Source: Beijerinckiaceae bacterium (lineage in GTDB: Bacteria; Pseudomonadota; Alphaproteobacteria; Rhizobiales; Beijerinckiaceae). From it: a DNA stretch of 64,000 nt. The DNA lies in NCBI GenBank assembly GCA_027532775.1, contig JAPZTO010000008.1, positions 187,501 to 251,500 on the forward strand. Direction: 5' to 3'. Positions 13,606 through 46,111 of the stretch are shown here, piece after piece. Under the pieces are notes generated by a model. That model had not been told where the DNA came from. It worked only from the letters and a program-made list of their open reading frames with translations, and did no database searches. Position 1 is the stretch's first letter. Each line of letters opens with the position of its first letter. Both the position numbers and the translations under genes were made by a program.

Positions 13606-14861
13606 GGCGCCTTGGGCGGGTTGGGCCGGCCGAGCAGCCGCGCCATTTCTTCTTCCAGCATATCCATGTCGGATTCGACCGGCTTGGCAGCCTGCGGCGG
13701 TGCCGCGGCAGGCGCGGCCGCAGCAGGCGGCGGGTTCGGTGAGGTCGGCGGTGCCTTCGGCGGGTCGATCATGCTGGCCAGAAGGTCGAGCTCGTCGAGC
13801 GAATTGACCGGCGCGGCCTTGCGCGGCTCCGTGGCCGGCGTGGCGACAACAGGAGCCGGTGCCGGCTCGGCTGGCGGTGCGGGCGGCGGCGGAGGCGGTG
13901 GCATGACCGATGGCGTCGACGGAACCGGCGGGATCGGCTTGTTGAAAGGCGGGCGCAGCTGGCCGCTCAGCGGCTTCTGAAGCACCTCGTTGAGACGGCG
14001 CGCCATTTCGCTGACCGGCTCCTGCCGGGCAGGCCGCTGTGGCGCCGGCGCAGCGGCCGGGGCAGCTGCGGACGGAGCGGCAGGCGGCGGGGGCGGTGCC
14101 ATCTGCGGTGGAGGAGGAGGGGGAGGCGGCGGCGGAGCGACCGGACGGGCCGGCGGGGCAGCGGGGCGCATCGGCGGCGACGAGACGAGCGAACGCTCGA
14201 ATTCGTCATCCATCTGTGCGGCGCTGGCCGGCGGTGTGACGACCGGCCGCGAAGGCGGCGGAGCCATCGGTGCCGGAGCCATCGGTGCCATGGGGGCGGG
14301 GGCCATCGGCGGCATCGGCGCCATGCGCGGCGGGGCCATCGGGGGCAGGACGGGCGCGGCAGGCGGGGCCATGGGAGGCGGGGCCATGGGAGGCGGGGCC
14401 ATAGGAGGTGGGGCCACCTGGGCCGGCGGCGGCTGGAAGCTGGCGGGCGCCATCGGCATTTCCGGGCGCACCGGCGCATCGGGAGCGGACAGGCCCTCGA
14501 CGATCGAGGCCAGTTCGTCCGGACCCGGCCGGGCGCGGCCTGCCCGCTCGCCCCGGACGATATTGCCCTCGACGAGGACATCGTTGGGGCCGCCGATCAG
14601 CAGCAGATGTTCGACATTGTCGCGCCGGACGATGACAAGCTTGCGGCCATCCCTGTCCAGGTTGAAGGCGTCGGTCACGGCGAGGCGCTGGGGCCGGCCA
14701 CCGCGCCCGCTTCCGCCCAGGTTGAGGCTGGGCCTCAGCACGCGCACGAGCCAGGCGGCGAGCGCCACCACCACGATCAGCAGCAGGAGCGAGAGGCCGA
14801 TCCAGAGGATCAGCGAGACCGTGCTCTCCCCGAGGCCGAGCTTGTCAATGATGCTTTGCAT
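13602..14861 (-). CDS. fliO: FliO-type flagellar export protein with long proline-rich tail
   Basis: A 419-aa protein. The start was set at the ATG for MQSIIDKLGLG, preceded by GGGAGAAGG, rather than the ATG 21 codons upstream. A transmembrane helix (about 14-37) is followed by a FliO domain (about 50-105: RLAVTDAFNLDRDG, RRDNVEHLLLIGG). FliO proteins are usually 90-150 aa; here about 300 further residues are low complexity, rich in Pro and Ala with tandem MAPPP units and poly-Pro runs, ending with an acidic SDMDMLEEEMARLLGR helix. Start codon of fliP overlaps its stop. FliO stabilises FliP during gate assembly; the tail's role is unknown. Confidence 0.85.
   Translation of the reverse strand: MQSIIDKLGLGESTVSLILWIGLSLLLLIVVVALAAWLVRVLRPSLNLGGSGRGGRPQRLAVTDAFNLDRDGRKLVIVRRDNVEHLLLIGGPNDVLVEGNIVRGERAGRARPGPDELASIVEGLSAPDAPVRPEMPMAPASFQPPPAQVAPPPMAPPPMAPPPMAPPAAPVLPPMAPPRMAPMPPMAPAPMAPMAPAPMAPPPSRPVVTPPASAAQMDDEFERSLVSSPPMRPAAPPARPVAPPPPPPPPPPQMAPPPPPAAPSAAAPAAAPAPQRPARQEPVSEMARRLNEVLQKPLSGQLRPPFNKPIPPVPSTPSVMPPPPPPPAPPAEPAPAPVVATPATEPRKAAPVNSLDELDLLASMIDPPKAPPTSPNPPPAAAAPAAAPPQAAKPVESDMDMLEEEMARLLGRPNPPKAP
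14361..14415. repeat. 15-bp tandem repeat within fliO encoding MAPPP units
   Basis: A unit aggcggggccatggg repeats about 3.7 times (14361-14375, 14376-14390, 14391-14405 with one change, then a partial copy). On the minus strand it encodes repeated Met-Ala-Pro-Pro-Pro. Frame-preserving copy-number changes would only lengthen or shorten the tail. Confidence 0.8.
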
Positions 14862-32952: not shown

Positions 32953-33570
32953 ATGACCAAGCGTCACGAAGCCAAATACAAGATCGATCGCCGCATGGGC
33001 GAGAATATCTGGGGCCGCCCGAAGTCCCCGGTGAACAAGCGCGAATACGGCCCGGGCCAGCATGGCCAGCGCCGCAAGGGCAAGATGTCGGATTTCGGCA
33101 CCCAGCTCCGCGCCAAGCAGAAGCTGAAGGGCTATTACGGCTCGATTTCGGAAAAGCAGTTCCGCCGTTACTATGCCGAAGCCGTCCGCATGAAGGGTGA
33201 CTCGGGTGCGAACCTGATCGGCCTGCTCGAGCGCCGCCTCGACGCCGTCGTCTATCGCGCCAAGTTCGTCCCGACCGTGTTCGCCGCGCGCCAGTTCGTC
33301 AGCCACGGCCATATCCGCGTCAACGGCAAGCGCGTCAACGTTCCGAGCTATCTCGTGAAGGTGGGCGATGTCGTTGAGGTGAAGGAAGCCTCGAAGCAGC
33401 TGACCCTCGTTCTCGAAGCCGCCGGCCTTGCCGAGCGTGACACGCCGGACTTCCTCGAAGTCGATCACGGCAAGATGACGGCCAAGTTCGCCCGCATTCC
33501 GGTTCTGACCGATGTGCCCTATCCGGTGCAGATGGAACCGAACCTCGTCATCGAATTTTATTCGCGCTGA
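32953..33570 (+). CDS. rpsD: 30S ribosomal protein S4
   Basis: A 205-aa primary rRNA-binding protein. The start at [20 protein letters not shown] has AGAGGAA at the right spacing and gives the family length; the open frame upstream runs through the leader by chance. The S4 RNA-binding domain is clear ([40 protein letters not shown]). Its last three codons are part of a 60-bp direct repeat whose second copy lies 1.28 kb downstream. Confidence 0.98.
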
Positions 33571-33620
33571 TCGATCGATCCACGCAAGGAATGCAAAAGC
33601 CGCCCTCCGGGGCGGCTTTT
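33561..33620 (+). repeat. 60-bp direct repeat, copy 1 (rpsD 3' end and terminator)
   Basis: This 60-bp segment begins inside the last codons of rpsD, includes its stop codon, a GATCGATC palindrome and the terminator stem, and recurs without mismatch at 34842-34901. Beyond it the two copies diverge except for a short ctg. Confidence 0.95.
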
Positions 33621-33623
33621 TTT
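33596..33623 (+). terminator. Rho-independent terminator of rpsD
   Basis: AAAGCCGCCC, loop, GGGGCGGC followed by seven T residues; 26 bases after the rpsD stop. A shorter-tailed copy (four T) exists at 34877-34901 within the second direct repeat. Confidence 0.9.
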
Positions 33624-33669
33624 CTGACGTGATCACCCCTCCCGCGGTCCCCCTGCAGGCCGGCAATGC

Positions 33670-33698
33670 AAAAAGGCTGCCCGCAGGGGCAGCCTTTG
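33670..33698 (-). terminator. Terminator of the outer-membrane protein gene
   Basis: An 11-bp perfect stem (33672-33682 with 33687-33697, loop around gcag) followed on the minus strand by TTTTT (33670-33674). It lies 24 bases past the stop of the beta-barrel gene and is also usable, more weakly, on the plus strand. Confidence 0.85.
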
Positions 33699-33721
33699 CC
33701 TTCTCGGAAAGAGCGCGGGTC

Positions 33722-34522
33722 TCAGAACTTGTAGTTCAGGCCAACCCGAACCGTATGGAACGAGAAGCGCGTCCTGACCTGCTCGGTGTAGGCTGGAGCC
33801 ACAAAAGCACTTCCCGGCAGATAGACCGAGCTCTTCGAAGCTCTTCCGAGATCCGTGTAGAGATACTCGAGCTTCGCCGTCCAGTTGCGGGTGAAAGCAT
33901 GCTCAACACCTGCACCGACGGTAAAGCCGGCGCGAACGCTTGAATTGCTCATGGCCTTGAGATAGTTGCCGCTCGAGGCGACGGACCAGTTATCCTTCAC
34001 CTGAGCGATCGCCAGGCCGCCGGTCACATAGAGCAACGTCCGGTCGAATGCATAGCCGACACGCGGGCGGATTGTGATGAGCCAGTCTGTGTCGACGCGG
34101 CGGGTGAAGTTATAGGTCAGCCCCGGAAAGCCACCTGCATTGTTAAGCGTGTTCGCCGTCCGTTTGCGGATATCGAAGAAATTGATGTCGACTTCACCGC
34201 CAACGACCACGCGGCCATATTGTTGGTTGTAACCGGCCTGAACGCCGCCAATGAAACCACCGCCACGAAGGTTGCCACCGCCGCCGTCACGAAAGGCATT
34301 CTGCAAGGCTGCTGCTTCTGTTGCCCACTGGCCACCGAGGCCAAGACGGGTGCGCTGCTCGCCGAATGCATAACCAGCATTCGCACCGACATAGAAACCG
34401 GTCCAGGTATACGATGCCATTACGGGCAGCACTGGAGCGCCCGGCTTCTTCCCGAGATCCGCAGCAAAGGCGGGCGCCGCCATTATTGTTGTGACCGCAA
34501 TGAGTGCCGACAGTTTGCGCAT
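33722..34522 (-). CDS. Outer-membrane beta-barrel protein (Omp25/Omp31-like porin family)
   Basis: A 266-aa protein. The ATG for MRKLSALIAVTTIMAAPAFA has GGAGGAC upstream and begins a Sec signal peptide. The mature protein has the pattern of alternating beta strands seen in rhizobial Omp25/Omp31-type barrels: YTWTGFYVGANAGYAFGEQ, GFIGGVQAGYNQQYGRVVVG, a AKLEYLYTDLG strand, and a terminal VRVGLNYKF ending in Phe. It is the only gene between the two copies of the 60-bp rpsD repeat, opposite in direction to its neighbours and less GC-rich than they are. Probably an acquired cassette. Confidence 0.88.
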   Translation of the reverse strand: MRKLSALIAVTTIMAAPAFAADLGKKPGAPVLPVMASYTWTGFYVGANAGYAFGEQRTRLGLGGQWATEAAALQNAFRDGGGGNLRGGGFIGGVQAGYNQQYGRVVVGGEVDINFFDIRKRTANTLNNAGGFPGLTYNFTRRVDTDWLITIRPRVGYAFDRTLLYVTGGLAIAQVKDNWSVASSGNYLKAMSNSSVRAGFTVGAGVEHAFTRNWTAKLEYLYTDLGRASKSSVYLPGSAFVAPAYTEQVRTRFSFHTVRVGLNYKF

Positions 34523-34841
34523 GAAGTCCTCCGCAAGCCAATGTTGACCCATTAGATGCTTAGCGTACCGGATTTTTTTTGTCATTCCTGGATTCGGGTT
34601 TTTATTTATTATCTGCTGTAATGTTGCTTGGTAACAACAAAAAATCAAGATTTCAGGAAAGTCACAGAGTCTTCGTGTGGAATGACTGCTTTAATTTCTA
34701 TATATACAATATACAATCATTTGAGATTGCTTTCTCCAAAGCAGAGATCAAGCAGATAAGGGTATGGCTTTGTTTCTATTCCGGTTCTCGCGGGCTTGCC
34801 CGGTCCGGCTCGGGCAAGGCAACCCTCATCGTCGGTTGCCC
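34523..34841. other. AT-rich intergenic stretch upstream of the barrel gene
   Basis: About 34560-34770 is far more AT-rich than any other part of the window (for example the stretches around 34600-34640 and 34680-34720). It holds the barrel gene's ribosome site and presumably its promoter. An open frame here (34579-34851, plus) has no family resemblance and runs into palindromes, so I do not call it. The base composition suggests foreign origin. Confidence 0.6.
34795..34840. repeat. Two tandem hairpins abutting the second direct repeat
   Basis: Hairpin A: CTTGCCCG (34795-34802) with CGGGCAAG (34811-34818). Hairpin B: GGCAACC (34818-34824) with GGTTGCC (34834-34840). The pair ends one base before the 60-bp repeat copy 2. 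It resembles a REP-type element or a recombination end structure. Confidence 0.65.
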
Positions 34842-34901
34842 TTCGCGCTGATCGATCGATCCACGCAAGGAATGCAAAAGCCGCCCTCCGGGGCGGCTTT
34901 T
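34842..34901 (+). repeat. 60-bp direct repeat, copy 2
   Basis: Perfect copy of 33561-33620. Here it is not attached to a coding sequence: it carries the rpsD stop region and terminator stem as a remnant, and a promoter for the next gene starts immediately after it. Confidence 0.95.
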
Positions 34902-34904
34902 CTG

Positions 34905-34933
34905 TTGCGCGCCGGACGGGTCGAGCCCTATAT
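34905..34933 (+). promoter_or_regulatory. Candidate sigma-70 promoter of the MBL-fold gene
   Basis: TTGCGC (34905-34910), 17 bases, CTATAT (34928-34933), a good alphaproteobacterial -35/-10 pair, 55 bases before the start codon. Confidence 0.5.
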
Positions 34934-34987
34934 ATTCAAACCAAGCTATATGACGCCTGCACGGAAGACAGGCGGGGAGACAACGTC

Positions 34988-35911
34988 ATGGACACCCTCA
35001 ACCGCCGCGAGGCGCTTGCGTTGGCTGCCGGCCTTGGCGCCACGATGGCGCTGCCGGGCGCCGCACGCGCGCAGAGCGTGATGACGCTCGGGCCGCGTAG
35101 CCTGCATGTGCTCTCCGATGGCGGCTTCGAATTGCCCGTTTCGATGGTGGCGCGGCAGGTGCCGGAGGCGGAGGTGCAGGCCCTGCTCAAGGCCGAGGGC
35201 CTGCCGACGGATATTTCCCGCTCGGTCCTGAATGTTACGCTGCTGAAGGACCCGGATGGCTGGATCATCTTCGATTGCGGTTCCGGTGCCAATTTCCTGC
35301 CCGGTTCGGGCAAGCTGGCGGCCAGCCTCGAGGCGGCGGGCATCGCAGCGGCGGACGTGAAGCGCGTCATCTTCACCCATGCCCATCCGGACCATCTCTG
35401 GGGGGCGATCGACGAATTCGACTCGGACCTCTTTCCGAACGCGACCTATCAGATCTCCGGCGCGGAATGGGATTTCTGGGCGGCGCCGGATGTCTATTCG
35501 AAGCTGCCGGAGGATCGGCATGCCTTCGCGGCCGGCGCGCAGCGGATCTTCAAGGCGATTGCGGGAAAAGTGACGCGCATCGCCGCCGGGCAGGAGGTTG
35601 CGCCCGGCATCCTCGCCGTCGACACGTCGGGCCATACGCCCGGGCATCTCGCCTTTGTCGTGGCCGGGGGCGGCAAGCAGGCCATGATCCTCGGCGATGC
35701 GCTGACGCATCGCGCGATTTCCTTCCGCCATCCGGAATGGCGGACAGGGTCGGATACGGACCCCGACAGGGGCGCCGCGACCCGCAAGGCGTTGCTCGAC
35801 CGGCTGGTGGCCGACAAGCTGCCCTTCATCGGCTATCACCTGCCTTCGCCCGGCCTTGGCCATGCGGTGAAGGAGGGCAGCGCCTATCGGTTTGTCGCCG
35901 GCGCGCCCTGA
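34988..35911 (+). CDS. Exported MBL-fold metallo-hydrolase
   Basis: A 307-aa metallo-beta-lactamase-fold hydrolase. The ATG for MDTLNRREALALAAG begins a Tat-like signal (NRREAL, then a hydrophobic run to AARAQ). The metal site is HAHPDH (H131, H133, D135, H136) with later DTSGHTPGHLAF and the LGDAL aspartate. The frame extends upstream through the repeat but this start fits the signal peptide. Family members include lactonases, glyoxalase II and other hydrolases; the specific substrate is not evident. Located just outside the cassette, it was probably the original neighbour of rpsD. Confidence 0.87.
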   Translation: MDTLNRREALALAAGLGATMALPGAARAQSVMTLGPRSLHVLSDGGFELPVSMVARQVPEAEVQALLKAEGLPTDISRSVLNVTLLKDPDGWIIFDCGSGANFLPGSGKLAASLEAAGIAAADVKRVIFTHAHPDHLWGAIDEFDSDLFPNATYQISGAEWDFWAAPDVYSKLPEDRHAFAAGAQRIFKAIAGKVTRIAAGQEVAPGILAVDTSGHTPGHLAFVVAGGGKQAMILGDALTHRAISFRHPEWRTGSDTDPDRGAATRKALLDRLVADKLPFIGYHLPSPGLGHAVKEGSAYRFVAGAP

Positions 35912-44799: not shown

Positions 44800-45915
44800 T
44801 TAGTTCTGGACGTAGGTGACCTTGCCGTCCGCACCCTTTTTCCAGGTGTACATGACGTAATCCGGACGGGTGATGTCGCCCTTCTTGTCGAAGGAGAGAT
44901 CACCGATGACCGTCTTGAAGGTCATGCCGGAATGCATCTTTTCGGCAACCTTCTTCGGATCGAGCGACTTGGCCGATTCCGCAGCCTGCTTGATCACTTC
45001 CATCGCCGCGTAGGTGTAGAGCGTGTAGGCTTCCGGGTTGATGCCCTTGGCCTTGAACGCCGCAACGATCTTGGCGGCTTCCGGACGGCTGCGCGGATCC
45101 GGCGGGAAGGTCATCAGCGTGCCTTCGACGCCCGGGCCGCCGATCGTGGCGAACTCGTCCGAGGTGATGCCGTCGCCCGACATCATGACGGCCTTGACGC
45201 CCTGATCACGCATCTGGCGGACGATGAGGCCACCTTCCGTGTGCAGGCCGCCCCAGTAGACGACATCGATGTTGGCGTTCTTCATCTTGGTGATGAGGGC
45301 CGAGAAGTCCTTCTCGCCGGTATTCACGCCTTCATAGAGCGCTTCCTTCACGCCCTTGGCATTCATCGCCTTCCGGGTCTCGTCAGCGAGGCCCTGGCCA
45401 TAGGTGGTCTTGTCGTGGATGACAGCGACCTTCTTGTCCTTCAGGTTCTTGACGATGTAATCGGCGGCGACAGCGCCCTGCTGGTCATCGCGGCCGCAGG
45501 TGCGGAACACGTTCCACAGCTTGCGCTCGGTGACGCGCGGGTTGGTGGCCGACGGGGTGACCATGAGGACACCGTTCTCGGCATAGACTTCCGAAGCCGG
45601 GATGGTGACGCCCGAGTTGAAGGGGCCGACCACGAACTTCACGCCGTCACCGACGAACTTGTTCGCAACCGAGACGCCCTGCTTCGGGTCCGACACGTCG
45701 TCACCCTTCGAGAGGGCGATCTTCTGGCCGAGAATGCCACCAGCGGCATTGAAATCGGCAGCAGCCTGTTCGGCGCCGTCCGTAAGCTGCTTGCCGAAGG
45801 CGGCGTTCGGACCGGTGATCGGGCCGGTCACGCCGAATTTCAGCTGAGCATTGGCAGCGCCCGCGAAAGCGAGCGTGGCGGCAAGCGCGACGCCGGCCAA
45901 CAAGGTTTTCTTCAT
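44800..45915 (-). CDS. Branched-chain amino-acid ABC transporter, periplasmic binding protein
   Basis: A 371-aa type I periplasmic binding protein of the LivJ/LivK family. Start at the ATG for MKKTLLAGVALAATLAFAGA, a Sec signal peptide cleaved after ANA. The mature start QLKFGVTGPITGPNAAFG and the ADYIVKNLKDKKVAVIHDK region are typical. It captures Leu/Ile/Val or another amino acid for LivHMGF. The permease/ATPase genes are upstream on the same strand but separated by 250 bases after the small membrane protein gene, so it may have its own promoter. The long frame beyond residue -38 is not coding. Confidence 0.92.
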   Translation of the reverse strand: MKKTLLAGVALAATLAFAGAANAQLKFGVTGPITGPNAAFGKQLTDGAEQAAADFNAAGGILGQKIALSKGDDVSDPKQGVSVANKFVGDGVKFVVGPFNSGVTIPASEVYAENGVLMVTPSATNPRVTERKLWNVFRTCGRDDQQGAVAADYIVKNLKDKKVAVIHDKTTYGQGLADETRKAMNAKGVKEALYEGVNTGEKDFSALITKMKNANIDVVYWGGLHTEGGLIVRQMRDQGVKAVMMSGDGITSDEFATIGGPGVEGTLMTFPPDPRSRPEAAKIVAAFKAKGINPEAYTLYTYAAMEVIKQAAESAKSLDPKKVAEKMHSGMTFKTVIGDLSFDKKGDITRPDYVMYTWKKGADGKVTYVQN

Positions 45916-46111
45916 CAGGTCTCTCCCTGTGACTGATAAGACGGGTTGATCTCGCCACCCGCAAGCGTCTCCAGCCGTGTCAATTAACACGCCTGAAACC
46001 ATCAAAGCCGGTTTTTTTGTCTCTGTCACCAGCCAAATTCACGCAAAATTCGATAATATTCGGGGCATTTCACCGCAACCAACGGCGATTTTCCGGTCGT
46101 CCCGCGAGGAA

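What the first reader, a model, noticed from the sequence alone, without database searches (positions are those of the whole stretch)
33561..34901. 60-bp rpsD-end repeat flanks an AT-rich outer-membrane protein cassette
A perfect 60-bp direct repeat (33561-33620 and 34842-34901) covers the last rpsD codons, stop and terminator. Between the copies lie one beta-barrel gene in the opposite direction and an unusually AT-rich stretch, ended by two tight hairpins. Copy 2 ends 3 bases before a good promoter for the MBL gene, so rpsD and the MBL gene were probably adjacent before insertion. The duplicated target restores an intact rpsD end, as att duplications do, but no recombinase is present. This looks like a minimal cassette entering at a ribosomal protein gene.
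Basis: partly seen in the sequence, partly recalled or inferred. Interest (0 to 1): 0.75.

Follow-up and report, generated by a model that had tools for sequence, protein, structure and literature searches.

The report
Transferred membrane-protein gene beside rpsD
A single outer-membrane protein gene sits just behind the ribosomal gene rpsD, between two identical copies of that gene's end; three close relatives have one copy and no insert, so the gene was probably brought in (or lost) by ordinary recombination, and nothing found so far points to a new mobile element.

Summary
The 60-bp perfect repeat is real and occurs in full only at these two places in the genome. Four close relatives in an uncultured Beijerinckiaceae genus settle most of the question. 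G015 carries the same cassette between two slightly diverged copies. The barrel orthologue was found in only 3 of 17 genus genomes (G000, G015, G008), in all three directly behind rpsD and facing it; no second unit was detected in G008. Between G000 and G015 the barrel gene is the second least diverged of 97 compared genes (dS about 0.11 against a median of 0.308), so the cassette was probably exchanged horizontally. No recombinase, transposase, attC site or terminal inverted repeat was found. Best reading (about 0.5): rpsD-anchored recombination of a fragment carrying rpsD end plus barrel gene, leaving the recipient's own rpsD end and terminator displaced on the far side. Site-specific integration and old presence with repeat-mediated loss remain possible. 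A tidy small case of a known process, not a new element class.

The parts
32953..33570 (+). rpsD (30S ribosomal protein S4), intact
   Evidence: TIGR01017 234.5 bits and NF003717 268 bits, both above cut-off; translation
33561..33620 (+). copy 1 of the 60-bp unit: last codons and stop of rpsD, spacer, intrinsic-terminator hairpin
33621..34841 (.). insert (1221 bp) absent from G016, G014, G013
33671..33699 (-). terminator-like hairpin of the barrel gene (read from the sequence); the stretch around it is similar in G008
   Evidence: sequence; similarity to G008 score 125 against 65.8 +- 12.2 in shuffles, 0 of 1000 reach it
33722..34522 (-). outer-membrane beta-barrel protein gene, 266 aa
   Evidence: PF13505 E 3.4e-15; orthologues in G015 97% and G008 73%
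34523..34770 (.). AT-rich stretch (37.1% GC) with promoter-like sites on both strands (minus 34637-34608 towards the barrel gene; plus 34682-34710)
34730..34841 (+). possible decayed tail of rpsD coding sequence in register left of copy 2 (doubtful)
   Evidence: anchored score 93, reached by 1 of 2911 window stretches and 1 of 1500 shuffles; unanchored, 8 of 2911 stretches reach it and 13 other places in about 703 kb match as well or better
34795..34840 (+). two adjacent hairpins; in G015 the first is much more stable as plus-strand RNA (-12.2 against -5.0 kcal/mol)
34842..34901 (+). copy 2 of the 60-bp unit
34988..35911 (+). MBL-fold hydrolase gene (AidB-lactonase-like, below that model's cut-off), neighbour of rpsD at the empty sites

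Best explanation
An OMP gene that in this genus has been linked to the 3' side of rpsD entered the G000/G015 lineage on a piece of a relative's DNA. The conserved rpsD end served as homologous anchor on the left. The right end of the incoming piece was joined (illegitimately or by short homology) upstream of or at the last codons of the recipient's own rpsD. rpsD therefore stays intact with one end and terminator, and the recipient's displaced rpsD end and terminator remain as copy 2 before the MBL gene. Once both copies exist, ordinary recombination between them, or between copy 2 and a naive rpsD, can delete the cassette or carry it to a new right flank without any recombinase. Shown: repeat, empty sites, second carrier, low divergence of the barrel gene, linkage to rpsD in 3 of 3 carriers. 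Inferred: direction of transfer, the joining step, and recombination as the agent.
For: Empty sites in G016, G014, G013 and a filled site in G015. Barrel orthologue in 3 of 17 genus genomes, 3 of 3 next to rpsD in the same orientation; two independent random landings there are unlikely. In a family-wide draw of 397 genomes, 22 have a match at E <= 1e-40; the 19 outside the genus reach at most 48% identity. Barrel dS G000-G015 is 0.108. In a control over contig C10 against G015 contig C12, 97 ORFs kept as genes have median dS 0.308 (quartiles 0.259-0.365), and the barrel ORF (0.114 with its longer start) is second lowest. Two other barrel genes have 0.261 and 0.655. Codon constraint alone does not explain this: barrel dS to G008 is 1.165, above the seven other genes compared (0.469-1.103). 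The stretch from copy 2 to the MBL start (143-147 bases, unit included) is 66.4% identical G000-G015, but 91.2% G000-G016 and 76.2% G015-G013, as if the cassette sits on two different right flanks with a break at copy 2. The unit of G000, G015 and G016 is nearly the same, while G013 and G014 differ, so the duplication looks young. No recombinase found.
Against: The upstream noncoding part is only 84.2% identical between G000 and G015, less than the barrel gene (96.6%), which a single recent exchange does not predict unless noncoding sequence evolves faster. rpsD, also slow (dS 0.088), and one other gene at 0.087 show that low dS can come from constraint. The donor-type arrangement is known from one distant genome only (G008). 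The possible rpsD tail left of copy 2 is far more diverged (67 of 107 aligned bases identical, even over codon positions) than the unit itself (100%), so one event cannot have made both without later homogenisation or terminator constraint. Local relationships are mixed by recombination.
Confidence: 0.5

Rival explanations
1. Site-specific integration: the unit is an att identity block at the 3' end of rpsD, used by a tyrosine recombinase acting in trans or since lost, and the insert is the remnant of an integrative element.
For: The block runs from the last codons to the end of the terminator and restores rpsD, as att blocks at gene ends do (the comparison is recalled); empty sites exist; the insert is AT-rich.
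Against: No recombinase or other element gene found in the insert; the 39-nt part of the unit has no exact match in viral contigs; among 44 rpsD loci the only duplicated ends with an insert are G000 and G015, both with the same cassette (limited to about 1.4 kb downstream in 28 of them); G008 has the gene at the same place with no repeat detected; a paper search for rpsD with genomic island, direct repeat and integrase gave one paper, whose abstract start is on another subject (listing only). A recombinase elsewhere in the genome was not searched for.
Confidence: 0.2
2. Old presence with loss: the barrel gene and both units were in the ancestor of the G000 clade, and G013, G014 and G016 lost the cassette by recombination between the two units, which leaves exactly the empty site seen.
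For: A 60-bp direct repeat can delete by recombination (general knowledge); G008 carries the gene at the same place; barrel divergence to G008 (dS 1.165) is at least that of the other genes (0.469-1.103).
Against: The barrel gene is second lowest in dS of 97 genes between G000 and G015; 14 of 16 relatives lack the orthologue (one of these, G010, is 78% complete and its rpsD locus was not found); the repeat itself still needs an insertion or duplication to explain it.
Confidence: 0.22
3. Local duplication inside one genome: template switching or unequal exchange copied the rpsD end and terminator behind an already present barrel gene, with no DNA from outside.
For: Gene order behind rpsD is unstable in the genus: the small membrane-protein gene and the MBL gene occur in either order, or one or both are missing.
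Against: Does not explain why the gene is absent from the closest relatives nor its low divergence between G000 and G015.
Confidence: 0.08

Closest known systems
Homology-facilitated illegitimate recombination (natural transformation; also E. coli conjugation, PMC3240628, start of abstract seen in the listing)
   Same: One end of an incoming fragment joins by homology, the other without; inserts foreign DNA with no dedicated recombinase and can leave displaced or duplicated recipient sequence
   Different: Here only the end product is seen; competence or transfer of this organism was not tested
Displaced 3' ends and orphan immunity genes in T6SS and Rhs loci (PMC5361080, passages seen)
   Same: A conserved upstream part anchors the new piece and the old 3' end is pushed downstream
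   Different: Anchor is a ribosomal protein gene that must stay whole, and the cargo is a lone outer-membrane protein gene, not an effector-immunity pair
Integrative elements at the 3' ends of genes (tRNA genes, icd; recalled)
   Same: Direct repeat of a gene end restores the gene; single-copy empty sites in relatives
   Different: No integrase found, 1.2 kb with a single gene, no other element seen at this site
Omp25/Omp31-like outer-membrane beta-barrel proteins of Hyphomicrobiales (name recalled; PF13505)
   Same: Same domain; several relatives per genome (6 matched stretches in G000)
   Different: This orthologue group was found in 3 of 17 genus genomes only

Membership tests
Homology-facilitated illegitimate recombination product | Insert next to a stretch homologous between donor and recipient | tested here: inconclusive
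   Insert begins directly at the rpsD end, a conserved gene (98.1% identical between the two carriers); the donor itself is unknown
Homology-facilitated illegitimate recombination product | Other junction with no or little homology to the recipient | tested here: inconclusive
   Left of copy 2 only a weak in-register similarity to rpsD; donor sequence unknown
Homology-facilitated illegitimate recombination product | No dedicated recombinase in the insert | tested here: met
Integrative element with tyrosine recombinase | Integrase gene in the element | tested here: not met
   Five other ORFs of 84-143 aa have no Pfam match at E <= 1 except one far below cut-off (SirB, 14.1 against 30.9 bits)
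Integrative element with tyrosine recombinase | Repeats that restore the target gene, and empty sites in relatives | tested here: met
Integrative element with tyrosine recombinase | Excised circle | not testable with these tools
   needs reads or PCR
Integron gene cassette | attC site bounded by RYYYAAC and GTTRRRY at the cassette end | tested here: not met
   One match of each motif per strand, all inside 33901-34148, within the barrel gene and not at the ends
Insertion sequence or transposon | Transposase and terminal inverted repeats | tested here: not met
   9 of 40 terminal bases match, ungapped; no transposase found
OMP_b-brl (PF13505) | Profile match above gathering score | tested here: met
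   57.1 bits against 28.7

The most novel reading that the evidence does not exclude
A recombinase-free portable cassette: a surface-protein gene framed by two copies of a universal gene's end, which by the repeats alone can be dropped into or removed from any relative's rpsD locus by RecA recombination, restoring rpsD and its terminator each time. The hairpins and plus-strand promoter-like site upstream of the barrel gene could add a divergent small RNA that ends on the borrowed rpsD terminator.
Probability: 0.15. Interest if true: 0.5.

Novelty: new member of a known kind. Interest (0 to 1): 0.33.

Why it matters
It gives a small, clean natural case, with filled, empty and repeat-less sites in one genus, of how a surface gene can come and go at a ribosomal protein gene without a mobile-element enzyme of its own. 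Such inserts are easily mistaken for att-flanked elements.

Tried and rejected
Dispersed repeat: rejected, two full copies only. Chance: rejected. Assembly artefact: unlikely, since an independent genome (G015) has the same structure with diverged copies. Weak second-site match of the unit on contig C16: it lies inside an ORF that looks like a methyl-accepting chemotaxis protein, judged chance (the name is my reading of the sequence). Rfam: none of 29 listed matches in 33400-35100 reaches its gathering score. A barrel gene near rpsD in another Beijerinckiaceae genome (L195, 34% identity; 1 of 78 loci other than G015 and G008) has another gene between and is taken as coincidence. Plasmids: 257 records hold relatives, all under 60% identity; viral contigs: 11 relatives at 25-39%. 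Decayed rpsD tail in G008: not significant (167 of 1000 shuffles reach it). In one search, 7 ORFs were compared and 2 dropped because dN exceeded dS (shadow frames); of the 5 kept, one (235 aa, dS 0.313) is an unidentified frame. In one search, 838 ORFs gave 216 usable hits, 116 with dN below 0.6 dS, and 97 after removing overlaps; rpsD does not appear among the 14 lowest printed, probably because its open frame starts far upstream. Literature: 0 papers for illegitimate recombination with natural transformation, orphan, direct repeat and terminator together. An earlier count said about 710 kb and the right figure is about 703 kb.

Full report
What is there. The 60-bp unit is present at 33561-33620 and 34842-34901 without a mismatch. 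It holds the last codons and stop of rpsD, a short spacer and the terminator hairpin. The genome held (17 contigs, 3.80 Mb) has exactly these two full copies; the other matches are short and weak. In about 703 kb read in full it is the only exact direct repeat of 26 nt or more at 0.2-12 kb spacing. The 1221-bp insert holds one outer-membrane barrel gene facing rpsD, a terminator-like hairpin for it, and the most AT-rich place of the window, then two hairpins. Five other ORFs of 84-143 aa have no accepted Pfam match.

Where it comes from. Of 17 genus genomes, rpsD was found whole in 16; G010 (78% complete) gave only a weak off-target match.

Empty and filled sites. G015 has rpsD, unit, barrel gene (97% identical), AT-rich part, second unit, MBL gene. 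Relative to the unit of G000, its copy 2 matches 48 of 48 bases from position 13 on, after a short deletion, and its copy 1 matches 58 of 59. G016, G014 and G013 have rpsD, one unit and then the MBL gene, whose first base is 137 after the rpsD stop. From the unit to the MBL start these are 91.2% (G016), 78.2% (G014) and 65.3% (G013) identical to copy 2 and what follows it in G000. This is the pattern of an insertion, or of precise deletion between the repeats.

Who has the gene. The barrel orthologue is found in 3 of 17 genus genomes (G000, G015, G008). In a family-wide draw of 397 genomes, which includes the genus, 22 have a match at E <= 1e-40, and the 19 outside the genus reach at most 48% identity. 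In all three carriers the gene lies right behind rpsD and faces it; in G008 it is followed by a small membrane-protein gene and no second unit is detected. In five other genus genomes (G001, G002, G005, G006, G012) that small gene lies 143-179 bp behind rpsD, so G008 too looks like an insertion into, or retention in, this gap.

Timing. Between G000 and G015 the barrel gene has dS 0.108. Eight neighbouring genes other than rpsD (icd, trmJ, ao, murI, MBL, hyd, purB, rpe) have 0.266-0.538, and rpsD 0.088 (gene names are my labels for the ORFs). Two other barrel genes have 0.261 and 0.655. As a wider control I compared ORFs of contig C10 with contig C12 of G015: 97 were kept, median dS 0.308, quartiles 0.259 and 0.365, and the barrel ORF, at 0.114 with its longer start, is second lowest; the lowest is 0.087. 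To G008 the barrel dS is 1.165, above the seven other genes compared (0.469-1.103), so its synonymous sites are not frozen. I read this as exchange of the cassette between the G000 and G015 lineages after their genomes had diverged. Against it: the upstream noncoding part is 84.2% identical, and identity along the locus falls from about 97% in rpsD and barrel gene to about 80-84% in the AT-rich part and 59% just behind copy 2.

Phylogeny. A tree from six linked proteins groups the five close genomes and places G000 with G013 and G016, then G015, then G014 (supports 91-97). Upstream of rpsD G015 is closest to G016, while from copy 2 to MBL G000 is closest to G016, so the locus is recombining and the tree cannot count gains and losses safely.

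The left side of copy 2. Extending leftwards from copy 2 in register, there is weak similarity to the rpsD coding tail over about 100-110 bp. The anchored score is reached by 1 of 2911 stretches of the window, and by 1 of 1500 shuffles for G000 and 0 of 1500 for G015; unanchored, 8 of 2911 stretches reach it. An unanchored search of about 703 kb finds 13 other places matching as well or better, the identity is 67 of 107 evenly over codon positions, and an old tail does not fit a young, perfect unit. I leave it open. If real, the displaced rpsD piece was about 170 bp long and only the terminator part was kept or homogenised.

Mechanism. The best fit is recombination anchored in rpsD. A fragment from a relative with rpsD end plus barrel gene pairs by rpsD; its other end joins ahead of the recipient's own rpsD end, which remains as copy 2 and still carries a terminator in front of the MBL gene. 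This resembles displaced 3' ends in T6SS and Rhs loci (PMC5361080, passages). The E. coli conjugation paper (PMC3240628) was seen only as listing with the start of its abstract. Site-specific integration is not excluded, but beyond the repeat and the empty sites none of its parts was found; a recombinase elsewhere in the genome was not looked for. The gene's role is inferred only from its domain: a small outer-membrane barrel, probably a surface protein that varies between strains.

Possible RNA. Promoter-like sites point both ways in the region (3 found, 0.9 expected), and the 124 nt ending just behind copy 2 fold better than shuffles (z -3.23), though the pair of hairpins alone does not (z -0.96). 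In G015 the full-length fold differs, while each hairpin folded alone still forms on the plus strand. A divergent small RNA is a guess.

What the check changed. Returning to the calls, I corrected the number of relatives lacking the gene (14 of 16), added the 97-gene control and the limit.

Noticed in passing
L058 (G011:C1), 215-574 bp behind the rpsD stop: An ORF with the look of a transposase fragment lies close behind rpsD in G011 (my reading of the translation; not searched).
   Followed up: no
L045 (G016), L051, L049, L052 behind rpsD: The small membrane-protein gene and the MBL gene occur in opposite order in G016 compared with G001, G004 and G005.
   Followed up: partly
L044, L045 upstream of rpsD: G015 and G016 share an upstream arrangement (94.2% over 1798 bases) that aligns with G000, G014 and G013 over only 864-876 bases.
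   Followed up: no
G007, several contigs: The terminator hairpin part of the unit (about its last 25 bases) recurs at several places in G007 at 88-96% identity.
   Followed up: no
window 44800-46029: The least diverged gene between G000 and G015 in the 97-gene control (409 aa, 99% identical, dS 0.087); not identified.
   Followed up: no
window 14361-14402: Short tandem repeat with a 15-bp period (27-nt exact repeat).
   Followed up: no
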